In this document: one piece after another, positions 2 through 40,568 of the stretch
How positions within the stretch are numbered: position 1 is the first letter of the stretch
Layout: each line of letters begins with the position of its first letter
Assembly: GCA_913065105.1 (NCBI GenBank)
Contig: CAJXZZ010000019.1
Span: 1 to 40,568 of the forward strand
DNA: 40,568 bases
From: an uncultured Gammaproteobacteria bacterium
GTDB taxonomy: Bacteria; Pseudomonadota; Gammaproteobacteria; SZUA-229
Reading direction: 5' to 3'
Translations under genes and position numbers: made by a program
Notes under the pieces: model-generated
Databases searched by the model: none
Seen by the model: only the letters and a program-made list of their open reading frames with translations
What the model was told of the DNA's origin: nothing

Positions 2-3000
2 GTTTTTGCTCCATTATATGGTGTAGTTTATGAGGCTTCTTACAAAACTGTATCTGTTTTCGGCAAATCAAAATTAGATGCTGCAACCATAACGTTCGCA
101 GAAACTGGTAATTATTTTGGTGGGGCGATTTTAGTCAATAATAGTGGTGCCAGCGTCAGTCTCGCTGATGATGTTGGTGGGATTACACTGGGTGATGTGT
201 CAAATGCGTTTGTATCAAACGATCTAACGGTCGTTTCTACTGCTGGCGATATAGCGCAGGGTAATTCTATAACAACCGGTGTAGCCAGTTTCGATTCTAG
301 TAATGATGTACTTCTTAGTAATAACTTAAACAATTTTAGTAGCACTATTGCGGTTGTTGCGGGCGGGGATGCCACTATTACAGACAGCACATTCTTGAAT
401 TTAAATTCTGCAGATGTAGGTAATGATTTAATTCTCGAATCTACTACTGCTGGCGTAGAGCTTGCTGGTGTAGTCACTGTTGGTAGAAATATGGACATAG
501 TTGCAGCAGGCACTATTACCGATGCATTAGGCACAAATATCGCTGTGACGGGTATAACCAGTCTTTACGCAGAAGCGTTGTCTGTGGCACAGGACATCAT
601 CTTTGATTCAACTGATAGTAATTATAATAGCGTTAATATACTTAGAAGCAATAATGTTGTTCTAGTTGATAACGTGGATAGTGTTGCAATTATGGGTGAT
701 GTAAGTGGTTTTTTGAATTTAACAGAAAATGGCACGGGCCAAACAAATGCTATTACTAATGCAGGTGGGCTCAATGTTGCTGGTGCAGCAACATTTACGG
801 TTGCTGGCGGTGAGTCAATTAACCTTGATAATACGGCAAACACTTTTGATAGTACTGTAAGGTTTAATGGCGGTATTATTAATTTAACGATTCGTGATGA
901 TACCGCGCTGACCTTGCAAGACGGTTTGACTGTTACTGACCTTGATGCTGGGGCTTTAGCATTGACTTTTAATAAAACGACTGTGACAGGCACGTTAACT
1001 GCAAATAGTACATCAGGTCTGATCAATCAGGTTGCAGGTACTGATCTAATCGTTAGTGGTACAGCCGATTTAAATGGTGTTGGCGGTATTGAACTTGCTA
1101 ACGCTAATAATGATTTTCAAGATATGGTTACATTGACAACAACATCAGCGGGGAATACCAGTGATGCCAAAATTACTGATAGAGGTGGTTTATTGATTTG
1201 TCAATCTAATATTGATGGTAATCTTACAGTAACCGCCAGTAGTATCACTCAAGATGCGACTGCGGGTAATGGTATTACTGTAGCAAATTCATCTTTGTTT
1301 ACCGTTAATAATGGTAGCTCTATTGAGCTAGCTAATACTGACAACCAGTTCAACTCGATTGCTTTTTCAGCAAAAACATCAGGTACTTTTCTTGGTAGTG
1401 TGACTATCAGTAATAGCGGGTCACTTGATTTACAGGGGCTGAAATTAACCAACGACCTGATAGCAACATCAACAGGTAATATTACTGACTCTGGCACATT
1501 AATCGTCCAGGGTTTGACACAGTTAGATGCTAATAATATTACTTTAGATGAGGCGGCGAATAACTTTACCGATATAACTATTGGATCAGTTGCAGCAGCA
1601 GGTGCAGTTGTTATTTCGGATGCTAATGCACTAAATTTTGTCGGATCATCAGAAATGAGTTCTTTAGTTGTGGATGTATCGATCGGTAATATTACCGATG
1701 ACGCTGCGGCCAGCCTTGTGGTTGCAAATAATACAACCCTCACAACCAGTAACGGTAGTATTGTTCTTGATAATGGTAATCATGATTTTGATAGTCTGCA
1801 GTTAAATTCAACGGGCAGTGCAACAATCACTGATTTGAATGCGATCGATATTAATAATTCAATGATCACTGGTAATTTGACGGTGACGGCAGATACCAGT
1901 AACGGTGGTGTGAATAATATAACCAGTAGTACGGGTGGTATTGTTGTTAACGGTAGTACTTCGTTGACAAGTTCGATGGGAGCTGATGTATTGCTTGCAA
2001 CAGGCGCTAGTCATACGCTAAGAGGCCCGGTTTCTATTGTTGGAAATGGTGGCAGATTAAATGATGTCCAGCTTACGAACAATACAAGTACTGACCTGCA
2101 AGACATACTTGCGACTACACTAACAGTAACTTCGACGGGCAATATTACAGATAGTGATTCGGTTGATGTCACAGGGTTAACCACGTTATCTTCTGCTAAT
2201 GACATTACTATGGATAGCGCAATAAATAATATATCTAGCATTGCGGTGACGGCAGCTAATAACGTAAATATAAGTAGTGCAAGTGATTTGCAGCTAGGTA
2301 GTATTAATATGAATGGCCAGTTAACCGTATTTGCAAACGGTTTAACTACGACCAATGATCTGCTGGCAAATACAGGTATGGATTTGAATGCAGGTTCAGG
2401 TTCGCTTGTACTTAACAATAATTTAACTGTTAATAGCGGAGAGCTTCTGCTTACAGCCGGGCAGGATATTATTCAACAGCAACTCATACAATCCTCGGCA
2501 GGCAATATTTCGCTTGATTCATCACAGTCGATTGTTATGTCTAGCACTGCAAGTACGCAGGCTGCAGGAAATATTACTTATACCTCTATAGGTGATCAGG
2601 CTGTTGCTTCGCTGGTTTCTACAGGGGGTGTTGTTTCATCAACCTCTAGTAGTGGCGCTATCACCGATGCAAATGCTGGTGGGGTGAATTACACTGCTTC
2701 TTCGGTCGTATTGCGTGCCGACTCAGGAATAGGCAGTACAGATGCGATTGAAACGACAACCGCTAATTTGGATGTTATTAATAATGGCACGGGTGGTGGC
2801 AGTGTTCAGATAACAAATACAGGTGGTGTGCTGCTAACTAATCTGGTCAATAGTGGTGATATTATTTTCAGGAACGATACCAATGTAACAATAGACAATG
2901 TCGATGCTGGCTTTACTGTTGGCACGTTCAGCTTAGATGTGGCTAATGGATCTGTGTTTGGTGTTGATCGAGGCGGTGTTAATTACCGAACGGTTCCTGA

Positions 3001-3352
3001 TATTACGGCAGACTCTGCCTTTATTACCGTCAATGGAGAGTTCGGTACTTTTGAGAGGCAAATCGTGGTTAAGCTAAATAGTGAATTTTTCCTTGCCTCA
3101 ACGGTTAGTAGTACGTACTACTTTGGTCTGCAGCCACCAACTACTGTAAATGATACCTCTGATCTTCAGCTTAGTGTATTTGATTCATTGAACAGTGTTT
3201 CTGGTCAGCAGTTGATTGAAATTGAATCGTTAGCCGATATTGATCCAGCTATTTTTACGGAGTTACATAATTACAACCATGAAAATATTTCCATCCGCCT
3301 GCCACGTGATCAAATGTTTGATGATGATTTAAAAAACTATGATCGCCTGTAA
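2..3352 (+). CDS. Giant repetitive adhesin/filamentous haemagglutinin-like exoprotein (TpsA type), C-terminal part
   Basis: The frame is open from base 2 with no start, so this is the C-terminal 1,116 residues of a larger protein. An internal Met codon at 197 is not a convincing start, because the same repeat-like sequence continues upstream of it. The chain is rich in Asn, Thr, Ser, Gly, Val and Asp and nearly lacks Cys. It is built of degenerate beta-strand repeats such as GNLTVTA, GNITD, NITLD and SIELANTDNQF, recurring roughly every 70-80 residues, as expected for a right-handed beta-helix exoprotein. The last 120 residues are non-repetitive and end in an acidic tail. No LPXTG, autotransporter barrel or RTX nonapeptide is visible. 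The next gene encodes an FhaC/ShlB-type transporter on the same strand, so secretion by the two-partner route is inferred. The defining TPS domain would be in the missing N-terminus. Function is probably adhesion or biofilm; a contact-dependent toxin is less likely, as no toxin-like C-terminus is recognised. Confidence 0.8.
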   Translation, partial: VFAPLYGVVYEASYKTVSVFGKSKLDAATITFAETGNYFGGAILVNNSGASVSLADDVGGITLGDVSNAFVSNDLTVVSTAGDIAQGNSITTGVASFDSSNDVLLSNNLNNFSSTIAVVAGGDATITDSTFLNLNSADVGNDLILESTTAGVELAGVVTVGRNMDIVAAGTITDALGTNIAVTGITSLYAEALSVAQDIIFDSTDSNYNSVNILRSNNVVLVDNVDSVAIMGDVSGFLNLTENGTGQTNAITNAGGLNVAGAATFTVAGGESINLDNTANTFDSTVRFNGGIINLTIRDDTALTLQDGLTVTDLDAGALALTFNKTTVTGTLTANSTSGLINQVAGTDLIVSGTADLNGVGGIELANANNDFQDMVTLTTTSAGNTSDAKITDRGGLLICQSNIDGNLTVTASSITQDATAGNGITVANSSLFTVNNGSSIELANTDNQFNSIAFSAKTSGTFLGSVTISNSGSLDLQGLKLTNDLIATSTGNITDSGTLIVQGLTQLDANNITLDEAANNFTDITIGSVAAAGAVVISDANALNFVGSSEMSSLVVDVSIGNITDDAAASLVVANNTTLTTSNGSIVLDNGNHDFDSLQLNSTGSATITDLNAIDINNSMITGNLTVTADTSNGGVNNITSSTGGIVVNGSTSLTSSMGADVLLATGASHTLRGPVSIVGNGGRLNDVQLTNNTSTDLQDILATTLTVTSTGNITDSDSVDVTGLTTLSSANDITMDSAINNISSIAVTAANNVNISSASDLQLGSINMNGQLTVFANGLTTTNDLLANTGMDLNAGSGSLVLNNNLTVNSGELLLTAGQDIIQQQLIQSSAGNISLDSSQSIVMSSTASTQAAGNITYTSIGDQAVASLVSTGGVVSSTSSSGAITDANAGGVNYTASSVVLRADSGIGSTDAIETTTANLDVINNGTGGGSVQITNTGGVLLTNLVNSGDIIFRNDTNVTIDNVDAGFTVGTFSLDVANGSVFGVDRGGVNYRTVPDITADSAFITVNGEFGTFERQIVVKLNSEFFLASTVSSTYYFGLQPPTTVNDTSDLQLSVFDSLNSVSGQQLIEIESLADIDPAIFTELHNYNHENISIRLPRDQMFDDDLKNYDRL

Positions 3353-3577
3353 GAATAACTAAGTTACCCAGGTTTATAAACGCTATTAATTCTGTAATGG
3401 AGATTGTGGCGTTCCTGTATCTGTCATTAATGTCTGTATAAATGTATAACCCGATATATGTGGTTAAGGTAATTGCGGGTAATAGGAGTTTTTCTTTAGT
3501 TAGTACGGTTTGTTTTTCGTAAAGAAGTTGTTTGAAAATAATAATTGATAAAAAATAATTTTTGTAAGGATTAAGTT
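3353..3577. other. Intergenic gap between tpsA-like and tpsB-like genes
   Basis: This is a 225-bp AT-rich gap with no ORF of note. It ends in a good Shine-Dalgarno (TAAGGA, 3565-3570) placed 7 nt before the TTG start of the transporter gene. AT-rich promoter-like hexamers are present upstream but none is convincing. No clear terminator hairpin follows the adhesin stop. Confidence 0.5.
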
Positions 3578-5470
3578 TTGAATTGGAAAAATAAATATAT
3601 ATTGTTGCTGGTTTTTATTATTTGTTTGCCGCTAGATAGTTTGGCTGGTTTTTTAGAAATGCCACAAATAACAGAAGTGCCAGATCTTGAACGTAAGTCT
3701 ATGCTTAAAGATCTGGATATTCCTAATGTTCGAGACCGTGATCCTGATCCAGGAGCTGGCCCACGTTTAAATGTTGAGCGTTTTAAGATACAGGGTATTG
3801 TGGAATACCCTGAACTTGGAATTACCAAAGCTGAAATTGAAAAACTGATCGAAGGCATACGCAGTGACTTAATGGAAGAATATAAAGTTCTGCCATCTGG
3901 TTTTACTGCGGGTGAGCTTGAAGAAGTCTCAGGTCTATTGGTCGAAATTGAAGAGCAGACCATGGAAAGGCATGTGACTGATCTTGAGGTTCAAAAATTA
4001 GTTTGGCTGGTTCGTGAGCAGCGCTCAAAAAGAGGTGTAACACTTGGTACGATCGAAACAGTTGCCGATAGGATAACGCAGTTTTACCGCGAACGCGGTT
4101 TTATTCTGGCTAAGGCGTACATACCACAGCAAGAGGTTAGAGATGGTATTGTTACATTAACACTTCTGTTAGGTGCGCTTGGTGAGGTTGAAGTGCATGA
4201 CAACGAAATGTACTCCACAGAAATGATTTCCTCGGTGTTTGATGATGATTTAACGCGCCCTGTTACCAGTAGTGCGATCGAAGAAAATATTTACCTGCTG
4301 AATGACTATCCAGGTTTGGCAGTCACCGGTTTTTTTGAACCGGGTGCACAAGTCGGCGATACCAAGCTAAATCTTAATGTGCATGCTGAAGAACGATATT
4401 ACGCGAATATTCGGATTGATAATCATGGTACTGATGAAACAGGTCGGCAGCGTCTCTATGGTGAAGTGTTACTGAATAATCTGGCGGGTATCACAGATCA
4501 ACTTCATATCGGCGCTTTACGCTCGGCTTCACCGAGCAATACTACCTACTGGTTACTAAGATATTCATTTGACCTGTTTAACCCGCGATTGCGATTTTCT
4601 ATGGGGCGTACGCAAAATCAATTTGTGGTGGAACAAAATAATTCGGAATTTTTGTCACAGTTAAATATAAGTGGTGTAACAGTACAAACAGATGCAACTC
4701 TTACCTATAAGCTTAAAAGAAGCCGTGTTCAAAATTATAACGTTGGTATTGCCTGGGAAAATATTTTATCAGACCTGCAGCTAGGTAATATCCCTGATCC
4801 CGGTAATCTGCTTGATGATGAGGTGACGAATCTCAAGCTGGTGTTTAACTATGACGTGCTTCAGGAAAGTAGCAAGATATTACATCAAGGACTTGTTGCG
4901 TATGTGTCAGGAAGCTTTGAACAAGGCAATGATTTTGGTCAGGATGATAATTTTGATATTCTAATTTCAGATTATACCTTACTCACTTTTATGAATATTC
5001 CATATGTGGATGTCGATACCCGTTTAATATTACGCTCATCTTTACAGTATACAGATTCACCCCTGGCATCGGTCAGCCAAATTTTTCTTGGTGGCCCAAC
5101 GAGGGCAAGGGGTTATCCCGTAAATCAATTTTCAGCTGATAGTGCATTCTATGTCGGCGTAGACTGGATATTTAATATGCCATCATGGTTGAATATTAAA
5201 TTTTCAAATATTTATAGCCTCAGAGATTTTGCGCAGCCGTTTTTATTCGCTGATGCTGCGTATGGTGTTAAAAACGCATTTAAAGATGGTGAGAGTAATA
5301 GTGAAGCAACATTATATGACGCCGGATTAGGCTTTCGCGTTTTCTATCTAAATCACCTACAGGGAAATCTACAATTCGCTTATCCCATCAGTAGTTCATT
5401 TACAGATGAGCTGCTGGCCACACCCAGTGACAGTGTTAGAATCGTATTTGATCTTCAGTACGGGTTTTAA
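3578..5470 (+). CDS. Two-partner secretion outer-membrane transporter (TpsB; FhaC/ShlB/HecB family)
   Basis: A 630-residue Omp85-superfamily protein that should export the upstream exoprotein across the outer membrane. Residues 1-24 are a Sec signal peptide (hydrophobic core YILLLVFIICL, probable cleavage near SLAG). A first POTRA domain spans about 67-206 and ends in the family pattern RERGFILAKAYIPQQ then DGIVTL. A second POTRA covers about 207-275. The C-terminal half is a 16-strand barrel ending in aromatic Phe (DLQYGF). The conserved loop-6 motif appears as TRARGYPVNQF near residue 510, corresponding to VRGY of FhaC. The start is TTG at 3578, supported by TAAGGA 7 nt upstream and by the signal peptide following directly. 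The first POTRA carries about 50-60 extra helical, acidic residues (about 85-150) compared with the usual FhaC domain. Family assignment is secure; the substrate pairing is inferred from adjacency. Confidence 0.9.
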   Translation: MNWKNKYILLLVFIICLPLDSLAGFLEMPQITEVPDLERKSMLKDLDIPNVRDRDPDPGAGPRLNVERFKIQGIVEYPELGITKAEIEKLIEGIRSDLMEEYKVLPSGFTAGELEEVSGLLVEIEEQTMERHVTDLEVQKLVWLVREQRSKRGVTLGTIETVADRITQFYRERGFILAKAYIPQQEVRDGIVTLTLLLGALGEVEVHDNEMYSTEMISSVFDDDLTRPVTSSAIEENIYLLNDYPGLAVTGFFEPGAQVGDTKLNLNVHAEERYYANIRIDNHGTDETGRQRLYGEVLLNNLAGITDQLHIGALRSASPSNTTYWLLRYSFDLFNPRLRFSMGRTQNQFVVEQNNSEFLSQLNISGVTVQTDATLTYKLKRSRVQNYNVGIAWENILSDLQLGNIPDPGNLLDDEVTNLKLVFNYDVLQESSKILHQGLVAYVSGSFEQGNDFGQDDNFDILISDYTLLTFMNIPYVDVDTRLILRSSLQYTDSPLASVSQIFLGGPTRARGYPVNQFSADSAFYVGVDWIFNMPSWLNIKFSNIYSLRDFAQPFLFADAAYGVKNAFKDGESNSEATLYDAGLGFRVFYLNHLQGNLQFAYPISSSFTDELLATPSDSVRIVFDLQYGF

Positions 5471-17233: not shown

Positions 17234-18871
17234 ATGTCGTTGTTAATTACCATTATAAAAGCGCCAGACTCGGCGAATATTGTTGAATCGAGCAAAACTT
17301 TCGACATTAGTGGCGGGTCGATCGGGCGTGGTAACAATAATGCCTGGATTCTTGATGACCCTGAGCGTTTTTTGTCTACTTGTCATTGTCAGTTTAGTTG
17401 TGAAAATAATCAGTTCTACCTTAGTGACTTAAGTACAAACGGTACTTTTTACAATGGTGCTCCGCATCCTATTGGTAAAGGCTCAAGACTACCGGTCAAT
17501 GACGGAGACACATTTGCCTTAGGGGATTATGTGTTTTCAATGACTGTATCAGATTCAGTTTCATCCGCCGATCCTTTTGGTGGCAGTACGAGTTTTTCAC
17601 CAACAGCACCAGAAGATATATTTTCAACTCCGCCTGCTAATAACAGTGATTTTAGTCAAGATGGATTCGCGGCCAGTCCTTTTGCGGGTACGCATGTATC
17701 TAGTTCAGAGTCGTTATTTAGTAGCAGCTCGGAAGAAACCGATCCACTCGCTGCATTAGATAAGGCGCAGGGCAGTGGGCCTGATAGTCTGAATTCTATG
17801 GCTGGAGTATCAGGTGGCTTTGGTAACAATATAGATCCGTTTACTGCTGCGACACATTCAGACCAGAGCGGTGCCCTTAATCAACAGATTTCGTGGCCAG
17901 GCGCAGTACCAGAGCAATCTGCAAACAACGCTAGCGGTATACCCGATGACTGGGATGATGATTTGTTGTCCTCTCCAGCGCAACCTGCAGCACCTGTGGT
18001 TACGTCTGCTGCGCCAATACCGCCGTCAGTGCCCTTAACAGAACCACCTGTTATACCTAAGCCAGCACAAGTGATACCGCAAGCGACGACGGATAATTCA
18101 GTTATTGATGGTACCGGAAAGCAAAATGCTGTTGAAAGTGGGACATTAGCAATTGAGAACCAGGCGTTACAAAAAGCCAATTCAATTCTGCTGGCAGAAC
18201 TTAATGTACTTAAGCAGCAAGTAAAAGTTATGCAGCAACGTGGTGTGAAATCTGATATTGCTGTAGATACTTCGATCGTAGATGCAATGGGATTTCAAAA
18301 TCAACATTTAGTTGATGCTCAAATAACACAAATTAATGCGTTGGCTGGTGAAGTTCTTAGGGAAATGGTCAGTGGGCTAATGCAGGTGTTAGGCTCTCGT
18401 AGTTCTATTAAAAATGAGTTCCGCATGAATGTCACCACCATTCAGCCTGTTGAAAATAACCCATTAAAGTTTTCAGCTAATGTGGATGATGCTCTGGAAA
18501 ATATGTTTATTAAAACGGGTAATTCCTATAAAAAACCATTAGAAGCAGTGTGTGAAGGTTTTGATGGTATTGCTGAGCATCAAGTGGCGATACTGGCGGG
18601 TATAAGATCAGCATTTAAAGGTGTTATTGAGCGCTTTGATCCCGTTTTTCTGGATGCGCGGTTTTCCAAACAGAATAAAGGTAGTTTAATTCCCGGTAGC
18701 CAGAAGGCGAAAAACTGGGATTTATATCAGGAATACTATAATGAATTGATCGGTGACATAGACAATACATTCCAATTTCTTTTTGGCGATGATTTTGTGC
18801 GTGCATATGAGGATCAATTACAGCGGCTTGCTATTGCCAGAAAGTCAAAAAACACTAAAAATGTTAAATAA
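17234..18871 (+). CDS. T6SS FHA-domain protein Fha (TagH type), phosphothreonine reader
   Basis: A 545-residue cytoplasmic scaffold. The N-terminal FHA domain (about 1-105) retains the key residues: GR at 31-32, S48 and H51 of the SxxH signature, and NGT at 69-71. The middle (about 110-300) is a low-complexity Ser/Pro/Ala-rich linker. A coiled coil follows (about 305-335, QALQKANSILLAELNVLKQQ). The C-terminal 200 residues match the T6SS-specific TagH domain, ending KNWDLYQEYYNEL and DDFVRAYEDQLQRLAIARK. In Pseudomonas and Agrobacterium, Fha binds a threonine phosphorylated by PpkA and switches the T6SS on; both kinase and candidate targets are in this operon. The ATG at 17234 has AGGA 11 nt upstream, a slightly long spacing, and directly follows the TGA of a three-codon ORF. 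It is the first gene of the plus-strand operon, 12 nt before tssJ. Confidence 0.92.
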   Translation: MSLLITIIKAPDSANIVESSKTFDISGGSIGRGNNNAWILDDPERFLSTCHCQFSCENNQFYLSDLSTNGTFYNGAPHPIGKGSRLPVNDGDTFALGDYVFSMTVSDSVSSADPFGGSTSFSPTAPEDIFSTPPANNSDFSQDGFAASPFAGTHVSSSESLFSSSSEETDPLAALDKAQGSGPDSLNSMAGVSGGFGNNIDPFTAATHSDQSGALNQQISWPGAVPEQSANNASGIPDDWDDDLLSSPAQPAAPVVTSAAPIPPSVPLTEPPVIPKPAQVIPQATTDNSVIDGTGKQNAVESGTLAIENQALQKANSILLAELNVLKQQVKVMQQRGVKSDIAVDTSIVDAMGFQNQHLVDAQITQINALAGEVLREMVSGLMQVLGSRSSIKNEFRMNVTTIQPVENNPLKFSANVDDALENMFIKTGNSYKKPLEAVCEGFDGIAEHQVAILAGIRSAFKGVIERFDPVFLDARFSKQNKGSLIPGSQKAKNWDLYQEYYNELIGDIDNTFQFLFGDDFVRAYEDQLQRLAIARKSKNTKNVK

Positions 18872-20919: not shown

Positions 20920-21900
20920 ATGTCATCTGATGATTCTGATAAGACAGTATTTAAGCAACCGTCAGTTGATGGCGATCGAACAGTACTAAGACCTACTCCG
21001 GGTGGACGTAATACCCAGTCATCGCAGGTGCAGCAACCTCCGGTACAATCATCGCCAGCCGCACAGCCACCACCACAGGGGTATCAGCCGGTAGCGGCCC
21101 AGTATCAACCACAGCAACAAGAGCAACTTGTTTCTGGTTCAACTAGTGCATATTTCAGTACTAACAGTGGATTAAACCCATTAGTTAATTCCGCCTCCAC
21201 ATTAATCGCGGTGTTTGAAAAAACACGTCAGGCACTGTCTCACCCAGATGTTGGCGGTTTGCACCAACGCCTGGTTAATGAAATTAAAACCTTTGAAACA
21301 AAAGCTAAAGAAACAAATATTAAGCCAGAAATTATTTTATCTTCGCGTTACATATTATGTGCAGCGTTGGATGAAGCCGTGCTTAATACACCATGGGGTT
21401 CAGATAGTGCATGGCCACAAAGAACGTTATTAAGTATTTTTCATAATGAGACGTCAGGCGGTGAAAAGTTTTTTCTGATACTTGATCGAATGAAAGAACA
21501 ACCTGCTGAAAATTTATACATTCTGGAGTTGATGTACATTTATTTAAGTTTAGGCTTTGAGGGTAAGTACAGAGTTATTCATCGCGGTCGTGACATGATT
21601 GAACAGATGCGTGATGATTTGTATCTCATCATTCGTCGCCAACGAGGCGAATATGAACATTCATTGTCTCCAGGCTGGCATGGTCTAGGGCGAACAAGAA
21701 AATCACTGAGGCAATATATACCTTTGTGGGTCGTCGCCAGTGTTGTAGGTGCGGTTTTATTCCTTAGTTACTCTGGGTTTCGAGTATGGCTATATGATTC
21801 ATCATCACCAGTCACAGAGCAGCTGGATAAAATTGCAGACATGCGCACAATTGCACGTACAGATCCAGTTAATAAAAATAGCGACAATGCAAATCAGTAA
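20920..21900 (+). CDS. tssL: T6SS inner-membrane protein TssL (DotU family) with N-terminal phosphothreonine-like motifs
   Basis: A 326-residue tail-anchored protein of the TssJLM complex. Residues 1-70 are a disordered Gln/Pro-rich extension. It bears two D-x-T motifs, SDKTVF around Thr9 and GDRTVL around Thr21, the second followed by RPTPGGR. The DotU domain (about 80-255) includes ILCAALDEAVLNTPWG, LSIFHNETSGGEKFF and ELMYIYLSLGFEGKYR. A single transmembrane helix lies at about 268-288 (LWVVASVVGAVLFLSYSGF). There is no C-terminal OmpA peptidoglycan-binding domain. In Agrobacterium TssL is phosphorylated on an N-terminal threonine by PpkA and then bound by Fha, so these threonines are the likely target sites here. 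GGAG precedes the ATG. Confidence 0.95.
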   Translation: MSSDDSDKTVFKQPSVDGDRTVLRPTPGGRNTQSSQVQQPPVQSSPAAQPPPQGYQPVAAQYQPQQQEQLVSGSTSAYFSTNSGLNPLVNSASTLIAVFEKTRQALSHPDVGGLHQRLVNEIKTFETKAKETNIKPEIILSSRYILCAALDEAVLNTPWGSDSAWPQRTLLSIFHNETSGGEKFFLILDRMKEQPAENLYILELMYIYLSLGFEGKYRVIHRGRDMIEQMRDDLYLIIRRQRGEYEHSLSPGWHGLGRTRKSLRQYIPLWVVASVVGAVLFLSYSGFRVWLYDSSSPVTEQLDKIADMRTIARTDPVNKNSDNANQ

Positions 21901-26243: not shown

Positions 26244-27041
26244 ATGAGTGATACAACAATCAGACGTCCGATATTCTGGAATTCTGCCCAAGATACTAAT
26301 GTGGGAATGGTCAGAAAGATAAACGAAGATTCGGTTCTGTCATTGCCTGAAACAAAACTTTGGGTGGTAGCTGACGGTATGGGTGGTTACGAGGCAGGTA
26401 ATGTAGCCAGTGATATGATCGTTAAATCTCTGGCGTCCATGATAAGTAAACCGTCTCTGAATGAAATGGTCGAATGTGTCGAGGATAACTTGATAGATGT
26501 TAATCACCGTATTCTTGAATATGCTGACATCATGCTCGATGGTCGTACGCTTGGCAGCACGGTTGTCACGCTTCTTATACAAGGGCACGCGGGTGCTTGT
26601 CTGTGGGTCGGCGATTCACGCTTATATCGTTATCGTAACAGTGAGCTCGTCCAACTGTCCCGTGACCATAGTCAGGTAGAAGATTTACTATCACAAGGAT
26701 TCATTACCCCTGAAGAAGCAGAGAATCATCCAGATTCAAATGTTATTACCCGGGCAGTTGGGGCAAGCCACGATATCTATGTTGATATTAGTGCATTTAC
26801 TGCGCAGCTTGGCGATACTTTCTTATTGTGCAGTGACGGTCTTTACAACATGGTTTCCAAAGACGAGATAAGCAATACGATAGCCAGTTTGCCGCTTTCT
26901 GAAGCGGTGGACGCATTAATCCAAAAAGCACTAGATTATGGTGCGAATGATAATGTCTCAGTCATACTGGTCAATGGTGAATTAGGCGCATACTCTTCAG
27001 CAAAACCGCAATTTGACTCACCACGAAGTCCAGCGATATAA
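26244..27041 (+). CDS. pppA: T6SS serine/threonine phosphatase PppA (PP2C family)
   Basis: A 265-residue metal-dependent PP2C-type phosphatase that reverses PpkA phosphorylation. Conserved motifs are NED (27-29) in VGMVRKINEDS, VADGMGGYEAG (D44), GSTVVTLLI, WVGDSRLYR, LSRDHS, LLCSDGLYNMV near 197, and GANDNVSVILV near 235. All metal-ligand aspartates expected for PP2C appear present. The ATG at 26244 is chosen over an in-frame ATG at 26172: it has GGAAA 7 nt upstream, it does not overlap tagF, and the longer version would add residues unlike the family. The N-terminus SDTTIRRP faintly resembles the D-x-T motifs of PpkA and TssL. Confidence 0.94.
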   Translation: MSDTTIRRPIFWNSAQDTNVGMVRKINEDSVLSLPETKLWVVADGMGGYEAGNVASDMIVKSLASMISKPSLNEMVECVEDNLIDVNHRILEYADIMLDGRTLGSTVVTLLIQGHAGACLWVGDSRLYRYRNSELVQLSRDHSQVEDLLSQGFITPEEAENHPDSNVITRAVGASHDIYVDISAFTAQLGDTFLLCSDGLYNMVSKDEISNTIASLPLSEAVDALIQKALDYGANDNVSVILVNGELGAYSSAKPQFDSPRSPAI

Positions 27042-27042
27042 C

Positions 27043-29691
27043 ATGATTGAAAGTGACGACGACAAAACAAAAATACGCCCCCCTGTAAATAAGCCTGTTG
27101 CATCAGACGATGCGACACGTATTGCCCCCGCAAAAGATAAAGTTGCAGCTATATTATCTAATGAAGATAAAACTCGTGTCGCCGGACTTTCACCACAACA
27201 ACGGCCATTAGATGATAAAACCAGGATTGGCGGTAACGCGAATCAACATAAAGCTAACGATGTAGTATCTGATCGAACCAGGTTTAGGCCAGATGTTATA
27301 CCCGTGGCTGATAATGTTCGGACTGGCGCGGTTAATGAAAATAGTGGTGGTTCAGTAACTCAACCGTTACCAATTGAGATCGGTGAACATGGCACCTTAA
27401 AACACCGTTTCGTTTTGGAAAAAGTTTTGGGTGTCGGTGGTATGGGTATTGTTTATAAAGCAAAAGACATGCTGAAAGTGGAGGCACAGGATAGTGATCC
27501 TTATGTTGCTATTAAAGTATTAAGTGACGAGTTTAAGGCGCATCCAGAAGCTTTTATTTCGTTGCAACGTGAGTCACGGAAATCGCAACGTATCGCACAC
27601 CCTAATATTGTAAACGTACACGATTTTGATCGTGATGATGCTACGGTATTCATGACGATGGAGTTTCTCGATGGTAGTCCGCTAGATGAGTTGATACGGC
27701 AATATAAGTCTACAGGATTACCCACTGATGATGCATGGAGCATCATAAAAGGAATGTCTTCTGCTTTATCATATGCGCATGCTGAAAAAATTATTCATTC
27801 TGATTTTAAACCAGGAAATGTCTTTGTTACAAAAAAAGGCATAGTGAAAGTTTTTGACTTTGGTATTGCCCGCGCAGTCGCCAAAGTTGGACATCTTGAT
27901 GACAACCCTGAAGACAGAACGATTTTTGATGCGGGTAACTTAGGTGCGCTAACACCTGCCTATGCAAGTCTTGAAATGCTAGAAGGTAAAGAGCCAGATG
28001 TTCGTGACGACATTTATGCGCTGGGATGTGTGGTATATGAATTATTTACTGGTGTACACCCCTATAATAAGATTCCTGCAGATGAAGCTGAGCGCCAGGG
28101 TTTAAAACCTAAACGTATTACTAATATTAAAAAAAATGAGTGGAGAGCTATTGAAAAAGCTATAGCCTTTAGACGTGAAAACCGTATCGCTACGGTTGAT
28201 GAGTTTGTTGAAGCTATATCGCCAAAATTAAAAGCATCGAACTGGATTGTAACTTCATTTGCTCTGTTGTTGTCCGTAGTTATTACAAGTTACTTTGTTT
28301 TTTTTCAGGAAAAAGAGGCTGACCCATTTTCTGAATTTGATATACGTAACGAATTAGAATTAAAGATAAAGATTGATTTTTATAAAGAAGATCTTGAGTC
28401 ATTAATTAAAGAGGCTAGTTTTACTAACCGTTGGCAAGAATCCACATGGAAAGATGTATCTGACTTAACGATTCTGACAAAAGGAGGTGACGCCTGGCTA
28501 GATGAGAAAAAACAGATTATTTATAAACTGTATATTAATGAGATAACATCTTCAATCAAGAAATACAAATATTCTACAGCTAATGGGTTTATTGAAAATG
28601 CTAAACGTTATACAGATGATACTAGCGAGTTAGATGTCTATTCTAAAAATATAGTAGCCGCTATAAAAAATGATAAATTAAGAAAAGCCAAACAAAACAA
28701 ACAACAGGATAATATTCGAGTAGTTCGCACACAACAGCAGGCTAAAGACCAGAAGGCATCAAAAAAACAGGAAGTGGTAAAACTCTTTGATATTGCACTC
28801 TCCAACGTAAATGATCAGCTTGAATGTCAACAACGTCTTAATATGCGGAATTTTGAAACTGCGATAAATAAACTACGAGAACTCGATCGATCTCGTTATG
28901 ATGCTCTACAGACAAAAATAGTGAATTCTCTTGCAGCTTGTATCGTACAGATAGGTAAGGTTTTTCCAGAAAGAGCATTAGAAGCTAAAAAACACGGGTT
29001 ACGGATATTTGCGTCTAACAAAACACTATTAAGTATTAATATTGAGTCCAGAGACCCTTGCGATAGGTCACTGGCAGGATTGGGTGCGCGAGGCAAACGG
29101 ACTGTTTGTAAGGATAATATAAAAACCGCTGGTACAGGTCCTGAACTGGTGGTTATACCAGCGAACAGTCAAATTAAAGCCTTTGCTATTGGTAAGTATG
29201 AAGTGTCGATAAGTGAACTTAATAAATTTTGTAAAACTTCTTCAGCTTGTGAGACAGTAAAAAATACGGATGATGAATTACCTGCATCAAAAATGAATTT
29301 TAGTCTGGTTAAAGGTTATATAAAATGGCTGAGCAAAATGTCTGGCCAGAAATATCGGTTACCGACTAAAAATGAATGGGTTTATGCCGCCACATCTAGT
29401 AGTCAAAGTCTTGATGCTAATAGAAATTGTAAACTTAGTACTCGAGGTATAGAAAAAGGCGGGGGATTAGTCAAAGCCAACATAGGCAAGCAAAATAGTT
29501 GGGGTCTAGTAAACTATGTGGGCAATGTACAGGAGTGGGTTTACGACCAGGGACGAGAATTAGTGGCGGTTGGCGGTTCTTATGAACAGTCTATGGAAAA
29601 CTGTAACGTTACTACGCTAAATCAGCATAATGGAGCAGGGGACAAGTCAACTGGTTTCAGAGTGTTACGCGAACTGAGGGTAGACTTATGA
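27043..29691 (+). CDS. ppkA: T6SS serine/threonine kinase PpkA with SUMF/FGE-like C-terminal domain
   Basis: An 882-residue transmembrane kinase. Residues 1-90 are disordered with five D-x-T motifs (Thr9, 25, 44, 60, 79). The kinase domain covers about 120-385: GVGGMG glycine loop (about 130), VAIKVL lysine (about 154), HSDFKPGN catalytic loop (about 250), DFG (about 271). The catalytic loop has HSD instead of HRD, a non-RD kinase. One transmembrane helix lies at about 400-421 (IVTSFALLLSVVITSYFVFF). A Lys-rich coiled region (about 425-640) precedes a formylglycine-generating-enzyme/SUMF-like domain (about 700-880: YRLPTKNEWVYAA, NVQEWVYDQG, GGSYEQ, GFRVLRE). The ATG at 27043, one base after the pppA stop, is preferred to the in-frame TTG at 27013 because the first motif then lies at Thr9, as in TssL. 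PpkA activates T6SS by phosphorylating TssL or Fha partners in known systems. Confidence 0.93.
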   Translation: MIESDDDKTKIRPPVNKPVASDDATRIAPAKDKVAAILSNEDKTRVAGLSPQQRPLDDKTRIGGNANQHKANDVVSDRTRFRPDVIPVADNVRTGAVNENSGGSVTQPLPIEIGEHGTLKHRFVLEKVLGVGGMGIVYKAKDMLKVEAQDSDPYVAIKVLSDEFKAHPEAFISLQRESRKSQRIAHPNIVNVHDFDRDDATVFMTMEFLDGSPLDELIRQYKSTGLPTDDAWSIIKGMSSALSYAHAEKIIHSDFKPGNVFVTKKGIVKVFDFGIARAVAKVGHLDDNPEDRTIFDAGNLGALTPAYASLEMLEGKEPDVRDDIYALGCVVYELFTGVHPYNKIPADEAERQGLKPKRITNIKKNEWRAIEKAIAFRRENRIATVDEFVEAISPKLKASNWIVTSFALLLSVVITSYFVFFQEKEADPFSEFDIRNELELKIKIDFYKEDLESLIKEASFTNRWQESTWKDVSDLTILTKGGDAWLDEKKQIIYKLYINEITSSIKKYKYSTANGFIENAKRYTDDTSELDVYSKNIVAAIKNDKLRKAKQNKQQDNIRVVRTQQQAKDQKASKKQEVVKLFDIALSNVNDQLECQQRLNMRNFETAINKLRELDRSRYDALQTKIVNSLAACIVQIGKVFPERALEAKKHGLRIFASNKTLLSINIESRDPCDRSLAGLGARGKRTVCKDNIKTAGTGPELVVIPANSQIKAFAIGKYEVSISELNKFCKTSSACETVKNTDDELPASKMNFSLVKGYIKWLSKMSGQKYRLPTKNEWVYAATSSSQSLDANRNCKLSTRGIEKGGGLVKANIGKQNSWGLVNYVGNVQEWVYDQGRELVAVGGSYEQSMENCNVTTLNQHNGAGDKSTGFRVLRELRVDL

Positions 29692-29915
29692 GTGATACTA
29701 GCTATTCAGCAATGCTACATAGTTTGTCAAAAGAATATTATCAAAACCATATTGGTTTTGAAGACTATCGCATACAGAGAAAAATCATACTAGATAAAAT
29801 TGACGAAGAGTTTAATGGTCGTAAGTTACATGATGAACCGGCCGAGGAATTGGAACAGTCATCATTATCTATGGATACGATTGCATTCTTTAAAGGTACG
29901 GATATTGAGGGCTGA
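29688..29915 (+). CDS. Small conserved-looking hypothetical protein (75 residues)
   Basis: An acidic 75-residue protein whose ATG overlaps the ppkA stop (ATGA), so it is translationally coupled to the T6SS operon. It has no signal peptide, membrane helix or cysteine. Residues 8-42 have the pattern L-x3-YYQNHIGFEDYRIQRKIILDKI, reminiscent of short C-terminal-type helical motifs (leucine, tyrosine, then G-I-x-x-x-x-YR-x-x-R). The C-terminal half is a disordered acidic tail. No function is recognised. By position it could be a PpkA accessory protein or belong with the downstream ExbB/ExbD/TonB genes. The reading frame is well supported by coupling and by amphipathic helix pattern. Confidence 0.7.
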   Translation: MSDTSYSAMLHSLSKEYYQNHIGFEDYRIQRKIILDKIDEEFNGRKLHDEPAEELEQSSLSMDTIAFFKGTDIEG

Positions 29916-30037
29916 TTTTTATGGCATACTCGCAATACTATTTGAAGTTACAATGTAGAAATTATTGAAAATAAACAGTTTGCTGCTGGTTCGAAGTTCT
30001 ATACAATCAGCTAAATTTTAGTTAAAGGGGATATTTC

Positions 30038-30655
30038 ATGGAGTTAGTTAAGTTTTTTCAAACCGGTGGGCCATTTATGTACCCTATCTTGCTGGTGCTG
30101 GCGTTAGGTTTAGCTATTGCTATTGAACGTTTTCTTTATATTACAAAAACTCAAGGAAGCACAAATAAGATATGGGGACAATTGGTTCCTATGTTAAAAG
30201 CACAGGACTTTTCTCGCGCTACCAAATTAACTGAATCAGCGAAGACACCATTAGCTACTATGTTGAATTACGGTTTTGCAAGAAAAAATGCAAATGCTGC
30301 ACGTGAAGGCATCGAATCAGCGATGGAAGAAGGAATGATGGAAGTGATGCCAGTGCTGGAACAACGCACACACTACCTGGCAACATTCGCTAATATTGCC
30401 ACCTTGCTTGGTTTATTGGGCACCATTATTGGCTTGATTCAGGCATTTACAGCAGTTGCCGGCGCTGACCCTGCTGAAAAAGCAGATTTATTATCCGCCA
30501 GTATTTCAGTTGCAATGAATACCACTGCTTTTGGTCTGATTGCTGCAATTCCGCTTATTTTGATTCACTCTTATCTAGTTACGAAAACCGCACGTTTGAT
30601 CGATAACATCGAAATGGCAGCTGTTAAATGCCTGAACTTGATAGCTAACGATTAG
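30038..30655 (+). CDS. MotA/TolQ/ExbB-family proton-channel protein
   Basis: A 205-residue inner-membrane protein with three transmembrane helices: FMYPILLVLALGLAIAIERF (about 13-35), ATLLGLLGTIIGLIQAF (about 125-145) and AFGLIAAIPLILIHSYL (about 165-190). The second-helix signature LLGLLGTIIG and third-helix NTTAFGLIAAIP are typical of ExbB/TolQ. It forms the pentameric stator of a proton-driven motor with the two ExbD proteins that follow. AAGGGG precedes the ATG. A 122-bp gap separates it from the T6SS operon end, long enough for its own promoter. Whether it serves the T6SS or an independent TonB-like function is not shown by sequence. Confidence 0.92.
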   Translation: MELVKFFQTGGPFMYPILLVLALGLAIAIERFLYITKTQGSTNKIWGQLVPMLKAQDFSRATKLTESAKTPLATMLNYGFARKNANAAREGIESAMEEGMMEVMPVLEQRTHYLATFANIATLLGLLGTIIGLIQAFTAVAGADPAEKADLLSASISVAMNTTAFGLIAAIPLILIHSYLVTKTARLIDNIEMAAVKCLNLIAND

Positions 30656-30698
30656 TTATTAAATTAATAAGTAAGCAGGAAATTTTGAGAGACATTGC

Positions 30699-31280
30699 AT
30701 GAAGCTGGTCAGACGTAGACATATACAGGAAACCGTTGAACTAAATATTACGGCCTTCCTTAACTTAATGGTAATACTCGTGCCATTTTTGTTGATCACA
30801 GCAGTATTCTCTCGTGTAACAGTGCTCGAACTAAATTTGCCTTCTAAAGATGCAATTGCCAAACAGGAAGAAAAAATCAAGTTGCAACTTGAACTGGTGA
30901 TAAGACAAGGCAGTTTTGAAATCAGAGATTCTAACCTTGGTCGTATTAAATATATTGAACGTAATGAGGCAGCGCCTAACTGGAAAATATTTACTGATAT
31001 TCTTGTTGAAATTAAAACACGTTTTCCAGATGAGCAAAGTATTACGCTATTGCTTGAGCCTAAAGTTAATTACAAAACACTCATTCAAGTAATGGACCGT
31101 GTGCGCTCAGCTGATGTTGTGCAATTTACCGAAGTTGAAAATGTGGAGCTGTTTCCAAATATTTCTATCGGTGATGCACCTGTCCTCGAAGATCTGCCAG
31201 CAGTGTCTGTATCTGACACTGCTGGTTCAAACACGGGCAGTTCAAATACAGCCAGCGCAAAACAGGCGATATCCAAATGA
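30699..31280 (+). CDS. ExbD/TolR-family protein, first copy, with Asn at the motor Asp position
   Basis: A 193-residue single-pass protein: cytoplasmic N-terminus, transmembrane helix about 17-40, periplasmic domain. The helix reads NITAFLNLMVILVPFLL, where typical ExbD/TolR has PLVDVMLVLLIIF. The essential proton-translocating aspartate is thus Asn22 here. The periplasmic part keeps the ExbD fold pattern (NLPSKD, then LLEPKVNYKTLIQVMDRVR). The C-terminus is a Ser/Ala/Thr-rich tail. The 3' end overlaps the next exbD by 4 nt (ATGA). It probably forms a heterodimer with the second ExbD, inside an ExbB pentamer. Confidence 0.88.
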   Translation: MKLVRRRHIQETVELNITAFLNLMVILVPFLLITAVFSRVTVLELNLPSKDAIAKQEEKIKLQLELVIRQGSFEIRDSNLGRIKYIERNEAAPNWKIFTDILVEIKTRFPDEQSITLLLEPKVNYKTLIQVMDRVRSADVVQFTEVENVELFPNISIGDAPVLEDLPAVSVSDTAGSNTGSSNTASAKQAISK

Positions 31281-31792
31281 AGGAAATGTCGCGTCGTGCG
31301 AGACGAATGGAAAGAAACCATAGGCGGAATAAACAGCCAGCACTTAATCTGATTTCTTTAATGGATGTTTTTACTATTCTGGTGTTTTTTTTGTTGATTA
31401 GCTCATCGAATGTTCAGCAGTTACCGAAGAAAAAAGACATACACTTACCGACATCTGTGGCAACAAAGGCACCAAAAGAAACGCTTATTATTTCTGTGTC
31501 ACAACGAAATATTTTGGTTCAGGGTAAAGAGGTCGCTACTATACAGCAGGTAATCTCCGATGCTGAGCCATTAATTCGTGGCCTGGAAAAAGAGCTGAAA
31601 TTTCAGGCATCAAAAAGCAGTGTGTTGACTACTACAAAAAGGAAGACGAAGGGTAGGGACGTTACTATTATGGGAGATGAAAATATTCAGTATGAGCTGT
31701 TACGAAAAATACTGGCAACCTGCCGTGAAGCTAACTATACACAGATATCTTTTGCAGCCATGCAGCAATCTAAATCGGGAGATACGTTATAG
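31277..31792 (+). CDS. ExbD/TolR-family protein, second copy, with motor Asp
   Basis: A 171-residue protein with a very basic N-terminus, a transmembrane helix at about 23-45 and a periplasmic domain. The helix reads LNLISLMDVFTILVFFLLI, with Asp30 in the proton-translocating position. This is therefore the catalytically complete partner of the preceding ExbD. The periplasmic part has LPKKKDIHLP, VSQRNILVQGK and YELLRKILATCREANYTQI, as expected for ExbD/TolR. It overlaps the previous gene by 4 nt and the next one by 1 nt. Confidence 0.9.
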   Translation: MKEMSRRARRMERNHRRNKQPALNLISLMDVFTILVFFLLISSSNVQQLPKKKDIHLPTSVATKAPKETLIISVSQRNILVQGKEVATIQQVISDAEPLIRGLEKELKFQASKSSVLTTTKRKTKGRDVTIMGDENIQYELLRKILATCREANYTQISFAAMQQSKSGDTL

Positions 31793-32745
31793 TGTCTTCT
31801 ATTTGTTATGAGCAACTGGCCTTAAGCTGGAGCCCGGTAAATAAAAATAATAAGCAGTTTAATATAATTACTGCTGTGGTTGTGTCTGTGATGTTGCTGG
31901 CTGGTATCGTAATATCATCAGTAACTGTGCCGGATGAAAGTAGGTTGGCGCGCAATGTAGTGCCAGAGCGTATCGCAAATTTTATAATCGAAAAAAAAAA
32001 GCCAGAGCCGAAAATCGTAAAACCTAAGCCTAAACCAAAACCTAAGCTCAAGCCAAAACCAAAACCTGAAGTTAAAAAGCCTCCAAAAGCAAAAGCTCAG
32101 AAGCCACTAACAAAAACACAAAAACAAGCTCGCGAGAAAGCCGCTAAAAGTGGCTTGCTCGCCCTGGGAAATGAGTTGTCGGATTTGATGGATACTTCTG
32201 ATGTTGACTCCATGGTCGGCGGAAATGTTAAAACCAGTTCTGCTTCAGCCGCAGCTGCGACAAGTCGAAATAAAGCTTTACTAACTGCCAATGCGAGTAA
32301 AGGTAGTAGTGGTGTCGATGCAGTCGAATACACTGCTGCTGTTGGCCAAACGCAGTTGACGCAACGCGAAATAACACAGGTTAAACAGTCACTGTTATCA
32401 TCAGACGCACAATCTAAAGCCTCGAGTAATCAGCGTAACAGATCACGAAGTGGTGGTGTTAGAGCGGAAGAAGACATTACGATTGTTTTTGATCAAAATA
32501 AAAGTAAGTTATATTCAATTTATAATCGGGCTCGTCGCACCAACCCGAACTTGAAAGGTAAGATTGTATTAGAGATCACCATTTCACCAGCTGGTAAGGT
32601 AACGCAGATAAAAGTGGTATCGAGTGAGTTAAACGACCCTAAACTTGAATCTCGATTAGTTAGTCGCATCAAGTTATTCAACTTTGGTGCACAGAAGGTA
32701 GAACAGGTAATTGTTACTTATCCTATCGAGTTCTTACCGTCTTAG
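31792..32745 (+). CDS. TonB-like energy transducer with AgmX/PglI-type C-terminal domain
   Basis: A 317-residue protein with one N-terminal transmembrane helix (about 23-43, IITAVVVSVMLLAGIVI). A Lys/Pro-rich segment follows (about 65-105, many KPKPKP units) suited to span the periplasm, then a Ser/Ala-rich linker. A C-terminal beta domain (about 225-317) contains IYNRARRTNPNLKGKIVLEI and ISPAGKVTQIKVVSS, ending VTYPIEFLP; this is the AgmX/PglI type of TonB-like domain. The start is GTG at 31792, overlapping the upstream TAG (TAGTG). It should couple the ExbB/ExbD motor to an outer-membrane or periplasmic target, which is not in the window. Confidence 0.88.
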   Translation: MSSICYEQLALSWSPVNKNNKQFNIITAVVVSVMLLAGIVISSVTVPDESRLARNVVPERIANFIIEKKKPEPKIVKPKPKPKPKLKPKPKPEVKKPPKAKAQKPLTKTQKQAREKAAKSGLLALGNELSDLMDTSDVDSMVGGNVKTSSASAAAATSRNKALLTANASKGSSGVDAVEYTAAVGQTQLTQREITQVKQSLLSSDAQSKASSNQRNRSRSGGVRAEEDITIVFDQNKSKLYSIYNRARRTNPNLKGKIVLEITISPAGKVTQIKVVSSELNDPKLESRLVSRIKLFNFGAQKVEQVIVTYPIEFLPS

Positions 32746-39663: not shown

Positions 39664-40265
39664 ATGAATAAAAGAAACTTTCTTAAAAGTGTCGCAGCAC
39701 TAGGTGGCTCTGCACTTTTACCATCTTCATTAAACCCGCTAGCAATGTATAAAACGGCTAGTGCAGCCGTTGACTATTCTGCAGCAACTGTTGTTGCTCC
39801 TGACGTTATGCCGCAGGTGATAAATATATTTTTGTACGGCGGCCCATCTGAGTTATCGGGTAACCTGACAAATATGGCCGGTCCTGACGGTATTGAAGCA
39901 AATTCGCAGAATTCGTATGCTACTGCTTTTGGCGGTAATATTTTGGAATTTGACAATGATGGTACCGGTGGAAATGGATTTATTACTAAAAATGGTTTTT
40001 GGCGAGGAACTCAACGCACACCAGGTCAAGGTAATGTCCATTTAGATGTTAGTGGTGCAGGTGGTCGTGCCATGCAGTTTATGCTTGATAATAGTTATAT
40101 GTCTGTTTACCGTACGTTGATGAAGAGGCTTGATGGCACACGTTCCCATCGTGAAAGTCTGTTGCAGAGTTTCAAAGGATCTTTAGACATTGAAGGAAGT
40201 CCAGGGGTAGGAACCAGAATTGCGGCAACATTGTATCAGCATCGTGCGCAGTTTGAAGGTCTAAC
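39664..40265 (+). CDS. DUF1501-type exported protein, 3' end missing (contig end)
   Basis: About 200 residues of a probable DUF1501 family protein. The N-terminus NKRNFLKSVAALGGSALLPS is a Tat-like signal with Lys-Arg in place of the twin arginine. The mature segment VINIFLYGGPSELSGNLTNM fits the start of the DUF1501 (sulfatase-like) fold, whose members are exported and usually pair with DUF1800-type partners. AAGGAAC precedes the ATG. Genomic sequence ends at about 40265; the frame continuing to 40332 is read from adapter sequence and its last 22 residues are not real. The function of this family is unknown. Confidence 0.8.
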
Positions 40266-40568
40266 AGATCGGAAGAGCACACGTCTGAACTCCAGTCACG
40301 TGGCCTTATCTCGTATGCCGTCTTCTGCTTGAAAAAAAAAAAACACAAACAAAAAAAAAAAAAAAATAATAATAATAAAAACATAAATACATGTAACTAC
40401 TTGCCTTCTCAGCCATAATGAGACGCAACACAGACCATACATACACCACCTGTACACCCACATACCTAGACTTTTTATATACTCATTGCTTCTCACTATT
40501 CCTCATATACATACTATATTAACACAATCAACCTTTATAACACAAATACTAATCACCTTTGCTACTAT
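40266..40568. other. Non-genomic contig end: Illumina adapter, poly-A and low-quality tail
   Basis: 40266-40331 match the indexed TruSeq read-1 adapter: AGATCGGAAGAGCACACGTC, then the segment ending TCCAGTCAC, an index reading GTGGCC, and the flow-cell end ATGCCGTCTTCTGCTTG. A run of A follows from 40332 and the remainder is A/C-rich low-complexity sequence typical of reads running past the fragment end. Frames over this region give the database-contaminant peptides RKSTRLNSSH and YEIRPRDWSSDVCSSD. Nothing right of 40265 should be annotated as biology. Confidence 0.97.

What the first reader, a model, noticed from the sequence alone, without database searches (positions are those of the whole stretch)
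27043..27320. Five D-x-T motifs tandemly arrayed in the PpkA N-terminus, with two matching motifs in TssL
Seen: PpkA has D-[KAR]-T-[KR]-[IVF] at Thr9, 25, 44, 60 and 79, spaced alternately 16, 19, 16 and 19 residues. TssL has SDKTVF (Thr9) and GDRTVL (Thr21). PppA begins SDTTIRRP, a weaker match. Known: in Agrobacterium PpkA-dependent phosphorylation of an N-terminal TssL threonine recruits Fha. Inference: the kinase carries a multi-copy version of the substrate motif in its own tail, so autophosphorylated PpkA could cluster several Fha molecules or compete with TssL for them, giving a threshold switch.
Basis: partly seen in the sequence, partly recalled or inferred. Interest (0 to 1): 0.7.

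Follow-up and report, generated by a model that had tools for sequence, protein, structure and literature searches.

The report
Kinase tail repeating its target motif
A bacterial weapon-control kinase (PpkA of a type VI secretion system) carries on a floppy tail five copies of what looks like its own phosphorylation target, the array is conserved in related marine bacteria, and it probably acts as a multi-point, switchable landing pad for the assembly protein Fha, although phosphorylation and binding have not been tested.

Summary
PpkA (ATG at 27043) has D-[KAR]-T-[KR]-[IVF] at Thr9, 25, 44, 60 and 79 in a 117-residue tail predicted to be disordered. Shuffling gives 0.005-0.17 copies by chance. 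TssL has the motif at Thr9 and Thr21. PppA's SDTTIRR is not the motif: +2 is Arg, and relatives lack the Asp.

Relatives settle the conservation question. Across 33 tails of this kinase clade from Gammaproteobacteria there are 122 copies against 6 expected. Motif positions are 88% identical to the window in five close relatives, against 28% for the rest of the tail. Copy number varies (mostly 3-7). The 16/19 alternation is not conserved. Ordinary kinases, mostly from related genomes, have 2 against 9.5 expected.

Best reading (inferred): active PpkA autophosphorylates loop and tail; the tail becomes a multivalent phosphothreonine scaffold that gathers Fha, whose FHA-domain binding residues are intact, and hands it to phospho-TssL. 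This is a new variant of the known threonine-phosphorylation pathway. I found no description of it in the open-access papers searched. No phosphorylation or binding data exist for it.

The parts
27043..29691 (+). ppkA: Ser/Thr kinase with N-terminal tail (aa 1-117), kinase domain, TM helix (about aa 405-425, from sequence) and C-terminal FGE-sulfatase-like domain
   Evidence: Pfam PF00069 at aa 124-364 (2.6e-38), PF03781 at aa 708-849 (4.7e-11); start codon supported by relatives' N-termini
27061..27075 (+). motif copy 1, DKTKI, Thr9
   Evidence: aligned copy kept in seven relatives
27109..27123 (+). motif copy 2, DATRI, Thr25
   Evidence: aligned copy kept in seven relatives
27166..27180 (+). 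motif copy 3, DKTRV, Thr44
   Evidence: aligned copy kept in relatives, EKTRL in one
27214..27228 (+). motif copy 4, DKTRI, Thr60
   Evidence: aligned copy kept in seven relatives
27271..27285 (+). motif copy 5, DRTRF, Thr79
   Evidence: most close relatives have DVTQF/DVTRF/DNTRF at or near this place
27913..27927 (+). activation-loop copy of the motif, DRTIF, Thr293
   Evidence: D291 and T293 at least 90% conserved and F295 invariant in 14 sequences
27412..28134 (+). kinase catalytic domain
   Evidence: Pfam PF00069; AlphaFold2 model mostly confident apart from the activation loop
29164..29589 (+). FGE-sulfatase (SUMF1-like) domain, C-terminal to the TM helix
   Evidence: Pfam PF03781
20920..21900 (+). 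tssL (DotU/IcmH), membrane-complex protein
   Evidence: Pfam PF09850 4.6e-68
20938..20952 (+). TssL motif copy 1, DKTVF, Thr9
   Evidence: conserved in the array clade
20974..20988 (+). TssL motif copy 2, DRTVL, Thr21, followed by RPTPGGR
   Evidence: a single copy of this kind also in many T6SSs of other kinase types
17234..18871 (+). fha: FHA domain plus T6SS_FHA_C; no D-x-T-x-hydrophobic motif
   Evidence: Pfam PF00498 aa 29-97 and PF20232; GR..SxxH..NG residues present in sequence; no motif
26247..27041 (+). pppA: PP2C phosphatase, presumed eraser of the phosphothreonines
   Evidence: Pfam PF13672/PF00481
25499..26227 (+). tagF
   Evidence: Pfam PF09867

Best explanation
The tail is a multivalent, self-written docking platform. 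When PpkA is switched on, it phosphorylates Thr293 in its activation loop and then, in cis or between neighbouring PpkA molecules, the five tail threonines, which carry the same D-x-T-x-hydrophobic core (mostly Lys or Arg at x). The phosphothreonines are read by the FHA domain of Fha. Because single T6SS phosphothreonine peptides bind FHA only weakly, several copies on one flexible tail give avidity and concentrate Fha at the membrane around PpkA, seeding Fha assemblies that are passed to TssL, which carries two copies of the same core. PppA would erase the marks. Shown here: the motif array, its conservation, its match to loop and TssL, predicted disorder, intact FHA residues and shared gene cluster. 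Inferred: phosphorylation, FHA binding, clustering and hand-over.
For: Array far above chance and conserved: 122 copies vs 6 expected in 33 tails of the kinase clade, 31 of them in loci with tssL and tssM. Motif positions 66/75 identical to the window in five close relatives vs 127/450 elsewhere in the tail. Logos of tail, activation loop and TssL share D(-2)-K/R(-1)-T-x-hydrophobic(+2), as expected for sites of one kinase (though D, T and +2 are fixed by the search pattern, the -1 preference is not). Tail pLDDT 25-42 against mostly 75-95 in the kinase. FHA phosphothreonine-binding residues kept in every full FHA domain of array loci examined. Ordinary kinases have no tail arrays (2 vs 9.5 expected). 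Separate arrays occur in same-clade kinases outside T6SS, two of them (L135, L143) beside a cyclase-FHA protein. Published: single phospho-TssL peptides bind Fha with Kd 0.5-1.6 mM (PMC3953482); in Acidovorax, Fha foci need catalytically active PpkA but not Fha phosphorylation, PpkA-Fha binding weakens when the kinase is dead, and PpkA and Fha both form condensates (PMC12607579).
Against: No phosphorylation or binding data exist for any of these sites. Tail and TssL copies differ at +1 and +3, so one FHA domain may not read both equally. Some FHA-linked kinases of the wider clade have no tail copies, as do T6SS loci L127 and L132, so the array is not needed for FHA signalling in general. Many T6SSs keep the TssL motif with a tailless kinase. 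Fha keeps a conserved Thr (RMNVTTIQP) and may itself be a substrate.
Confidence: 0.5

Rival explanations
1. Autoinhibitory or competing substrate: unphosphorylated tail copies occupy the PpkA active site (cis decoy), slowing phosphorylation of TssL until enough copies are phosphorylated, giving a delay or threshold. Fha binding is not the point.
For: Tail copies resemble the activation-loop and TssL sites; several copies of a substrate in cis are a simple way to build a delay.
Against: Threonine is kept at the acceptor place, so these are substrates and not pseudosubstrates; the AlphaFold2 model does not dock the tail (pLDDT 25-42), though this is weak evidence; a cis competitor needs only one copy.
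Confidence: 0.17
2. Phosphorylation-independent scaffold: the charged, repetitive tail drives PpkA self-association or contacts with TssL/Fha without phosphate.
For: Tail is predicted disordered and rich in charged residues; Acidovorax PpkA forms condensates in vitro (PMC12607579).
Against: Conservation concentrates on the D-x-T-x-hydrophobic core (88% vs 28%); the conserved Thr has no obvious role without phosphate.
Confidence: 0.12
3. Docking array for another reader: the tail phosphothreonines recruit a protein other than Fha, or dock TssL, PppA or another PpkA.
For: +1 and +3 residues of tail copies differ from TssL copies, hinting at a different reader.
Against: Fha is the only FHA-domain protein identified in the window's T6SS cluster, and its FHA residues are conserved in array loci.
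Confidence: 0.12
4. No function: low-complexity repeats drifting in a disordered tail.
For: Copy number and spacing vary freely.
Against: Twenty-fold excess over shuffles, core conserved against diverged linkers, varied codons, match to activation loop.
Confidence: 0.04

Closest known systems
T6SS threonine-phosphorylation pathway (PpkA-PppA-Fha-TagF; P. aeruginosa H1, S. marcescens, A. citrulli)
   Same: Membrane kinase PpkA, phosphatase PppA, FHA protein Fha and TagF in one T6SS cluster; autophosphorylating PpkA activates assembly (PMC10482370, PMC6082577).
   Different: Known targets are single Thr sites in Fha (P. aeruginosa T362, S. marcescens T438, A. citrulli T640). The P. aeruginosa PpkA kinase structure 5hnv aligns from its residue 4 with query residue 103, i.e. 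no long tail in that construct. No tail array is described in the papers searched.
Agrobacterium PpkA-TssL-Fha relay
   Same: PpkA-dependent N-terminal TssL phosphothreonine read by Fha's FHA domain (PMC3953482).
   Different: One site, DLPpTVVEI, not D-x-T; here TssL has two D-[KR]-T-V-hydrophobic copies and the kinase has five more in its tail.
M. tuberculosis Rv1747 (FHA domains plus multi-Thr linker, kinase-driven clustering)
   Same: Kinase-written multivalent contacts reported to tune clustering (review PMC8573418).
   Different: There the phosphosites and FHA domains sit in one transporter (own knowledge); here the array is on the kinase and the FHA on a partner.
Eukaryotic MDC1 SDTD region bound by NBS1; Rad53 N-terminal TQ cluster (Rad53 and the FHA detail from own knowledge)
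   Same: Repeated acidic-x-Thr motifs as phosphate-dependent docking arrays (MDC1: PMC6858307).
   Different: Different kinases, unrelated proteins; analogy only.

Membership tests
T6SS threonine-phosphorylation pathway (PpkA type) | Hanks-type Ser/Thr kinase with a TM helix, encoded in a T6SS cluster | tested here: met
   Pfam Pkinase 2.6e-38; TssL, TagF, Fha, TssA and PppA neighbours by Pfam; TM helix read from sequence
T6SS threonine-phosphorylation pathway (PpkA type) | Cognate PP2C phosphatase, FHA-domain Fha and TagF in the cluster | tested here: met
[quoted passage not shown]
   Catalytic motifs present in sequence (HSDFKPGN, DFG); activity needs an assay
Phosphothreonine-FHA docking array | Several copies of one Thr motif in a disordered region | tested here: met
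   (disorder is predicted)
Phosphothreonine-FHA docking array | FHA partner with intact phosphothreonine-binding residues | tested here: met
Phosphothreonine-FHA docking array | Thr residues are phosphorylated and bound by the FHA domain | not testable with these tools
   needs mass spectrometry and binding assays
Agrobacterium-type TssL phosphosite | Asp-Leu-Pro-Thr-Val-Val-Glu context at the N-terminus of TssL | tested here: not met
   Here DKTVF and DRTVL with Asp at -2 vs DLPpTVVEI with Asp at -3; N-terminal position, Thr, Val at +1 and hydrophobic +2 agree

The most novel reading that the evidence does not exclude
A bacterial kinase uses a self-phosphorylated, multi-copy tail as a valency dial: graded numbers of phosphothreonines set how much FHA scaffold is gathered, so that the kinase nucleates a condensate from which the T6SS is built; kinase lineages have expanded and contracted the copy number (1-7) repeatedly, and same-clade kinases outside T6SS evolved separate arrays, some next to other FHA proteins.
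Probability: 0.25. Interest if true: 0.75.

Novelty: new variant of a known kind. Interest (0 to 1): 0.56.

Why it matters
It offers a concrete molecular basis for an open point in T6SS control: in Acidovorax, Fha foci need active PpkA but not Fha phosphorylation (PMC12607579), and single phosphopeptides bind FHA only in the millimolar range (PMC3953482). A kinase that writes several FHA sites on itself would address both, in lineages that carry the array. It also gives a predicted target motif, D-[KR]-T-x-[IVLF], seen in activation loop, tail and TssL, which can be used to look for further targets. Copy number differs between close relatives, so dose dependence can be tested by comparing natural variants.

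Tried and rejected
PppA as a motif carrier: rejected, +2 is Arg and Asp is not conserved. The 16/19 spacing as a feature: rejected; relatives have 16,18,18,16,15,13 or 16,41,16,15,13 and others, only the first 16 (and a following 18-19) recurs in close relatives. 'Fha lost its own site when the tail arose': considered because several tailless systems have R-x-D-x-T-T in Fha, but the Thr itself is conserved in array-bearing Fha (RMNVTTIQP) and the residue two before it varies in both groups, so dropped. Covariation of the acidic residue (loop Glu vs tail Glu): not found; tails prefer Asp even when the loop has Glu. Array always accompanying an FHA neighbour in the non-T6SS group: not consistent. 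No PDB sequence match for Fha. Vibrio alginolyticus PpkA2 and P. aeruginosa TagR papers are not held.

Full report
What is there. The window holds a T6SS cluster. PpkA (27043-29691) has a Pfam kinase domain at residues 124-364, a TM helix and a C-terminal FGE-sulfatase-like domain; its neighbours include Fha (FHA domain plus T6SS_FHA_C), TssL (DotU), TagF, PppA (PP2C) and TssA. In shuffles of the same tail the expectation is 0.17 copies (0.0045 for the stricter pattern), and none of 200,000 shuffles reached five. The codons differ between copies and the DNA repeat finder sees only one imperfect 16-nt pair, so the copies look kept at the protein level.

The activation loop of PpkA reads DNPEDRTIFDAGNLGALTPAYAS. 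Thr293 sits in D-R-T-I-F, the same core. In 14 sequences D291 and T293 are at least 90% conserved and F295 is invariant. Activation-loop threonines of Hanks kinases are classical autophosphorylation sites (general knowledge), so the tail and TssL motifs look like copies of a site this kinase would phosphorylate in itself. Logos: tail (121 copies) D-[K54 A14 R10]-T-[R62 Q12]-[I51 F23 V11]; activation loop (28) [D92 E7]-[K57 Q17]-T-[V67]-F-D-A-G; TssL (55) D-[K45 R38]-T-[V76]-[F41 I27] followed by basic residue and often Pro. D, T and the hydrophobic class at +2 are fixed by the search pattern; the other columns are not.

Conservation. Related loci came from a genome-contig scan and from order- and class-wide profile searches; 76 stretches around kinase matches were fetched. 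Thirty-three distinct tails were tested: 31 in loci with tssL and tssM, plus two close homologues (L044, L122) where those genes were not found in the stretch held. They hold 122 copies against 6.0 expected; most have 3-7, a few 1-2, and L127 and L132 have none. Spacing is free. Between the window and its five close relatives L106-L110, core positions match in 66 of 75 comparisons, against 127 of 450 for the rest of the tail. Relatives on beta- and alphaproteobacterial replicons have at most one copy, counting Glu as well as Asp. In a kinase-domain tree the T6SS arrays fall mainly in one clade (deep support weak, 0.40), with separate arrays elsewhere, e.g. L135, L143, L157/L159 and L131. Rooting was at the midpoint and copy counts use the first in-frame ATG, so origins are approximate.

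Partners. In the array clade TssL carries two copies (about Thr9 and Thr21) almost without exception. T6SSs with other kinase types often have one, and often a tailless kinase, so the TssL site is the more widespread element and the tail array is the clade's addition. Fha of the window has no D-x-T-x-hydrophobic motif but keeps a conserved Thr in its C-terminal domain. The FHA domain keeps GR, SxxH and NG in every full domain of array loci examined. AlphaFold2 gives the tail pLDDT 25-42 and the kinase mostly 75-95, with the activation loop also below 50.

Mechanism. The best-supported reading is a self-written multivalent FHA docking tail. The anatomical steps are shown; phosphorylation, binding and clustering are inferred. 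The weakness of single-site binding (Kd 0.5-1.6 mM for phospho-TssL with Fha, PMC3953482) makes multiple sites useful, and the Acidovorax work reports that Fha foci depend on active PpkA but not on Fha phosphorylation and that both proteins form condensates (PMC12607579). That organism's PpkA tail was not examined here, so this is a parallel and not proof. Against identical reading of tail and TssL stands their difference at +1 and +3. A substrate-competition role remains possible and is separable by experiment.

Relation to known systems. It belongs to the PpkA-PppA-Fha pathway by gene content; the multi-copy tail is the new element. Literature searches of the open-access library showed no description of it, but subscription papers are mostly not held. 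Functional parallels are Rv1747 in M. tuberculosis (PMC8573418) and MDC1 SDTD repeats with NBS1 (PMC6858307).

Context. The genome is a 3.06-Mb assembly in 147 contigs. Of 18 genomes of its genus only this one matched the PpkA profile at the cut-off used, while five of one neighbouring genus and a few others in the family did, so the cluster may have been acquired horizontally, lost in sisters, missed in incomplete assemblies, or binned wrongly (estimated contamination 3.28%). The finding does not depend on this because the array recurs in many genomes.

Noticed in passing
window 40267-40568: The contig end holds an Illumina TruSeq-type adapter (AGATCGGAAGAGCACACGTCTGAACTCCAGTCAC...ATCTCGTATGCCGTCTTCTGCTTG) followed by poly-A and low-complexity bases; the 222-aa ORF 39664-40332 ends in adapter translation (STRLNSSH...). 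The last 300 bases are an assembly artefact.
   Followed up: yes
L135:4696-10747, L143:4692-10680: A second, non-T6SS system of the same kinase clade: giant kinase with FGE domain and D-x-T tail array, PppA, and an adenylate/guanylate cyclase fused to an FHA domain; in L143 next to two-partner-secretion genes.
   Followed up: partly
window 197-5470: A repeat protein (DUF5649 repeats) and a ShlB/FhaC-type transporter, i.e. a likely two-partner-secretion pair, lie beside the T6SS, echoing the secretion genes beside some non-T6SS kinases.
   Followed up: no
window 29164-29589: PpkA ends in an FGE-sulfatase/SUMF1-like domain. The P. aeruginosa kinase activator TagR is of this family (own knowledge), so the sensor may be fused to the kinase here.
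   Followed up: no
L129 and L134 (kinase activation loops): Activation loops enlarged to carry two motif copies (QDKTLFNFSENSGVITKSNDTTIFDPS; QDKTVFNFNESDSAVTAETTDATIFDP) in kinases with almost no tail.
   Followed up: no
L046 (Marinibactrum halimedae PpkA): Activation loop lacks the threonine (VDEDDEFDAG, acidic) while the tail keeps four DRTVF/DKTVF-type copies: possibly a constitutively active kinase.
   Followed up: no
window 29688-32745: A 75-aa ORF without a Pfam match and ExbB/ExbD/TonB-like genes directly follow the T6SS kinase.
   Followed up: no
G000, whole genome: This PpkA type is found in only one of 18 genomes of the genus: horizontal gain, loss in sisters, incomplete assemblies, or binning error.
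   Followed up: no
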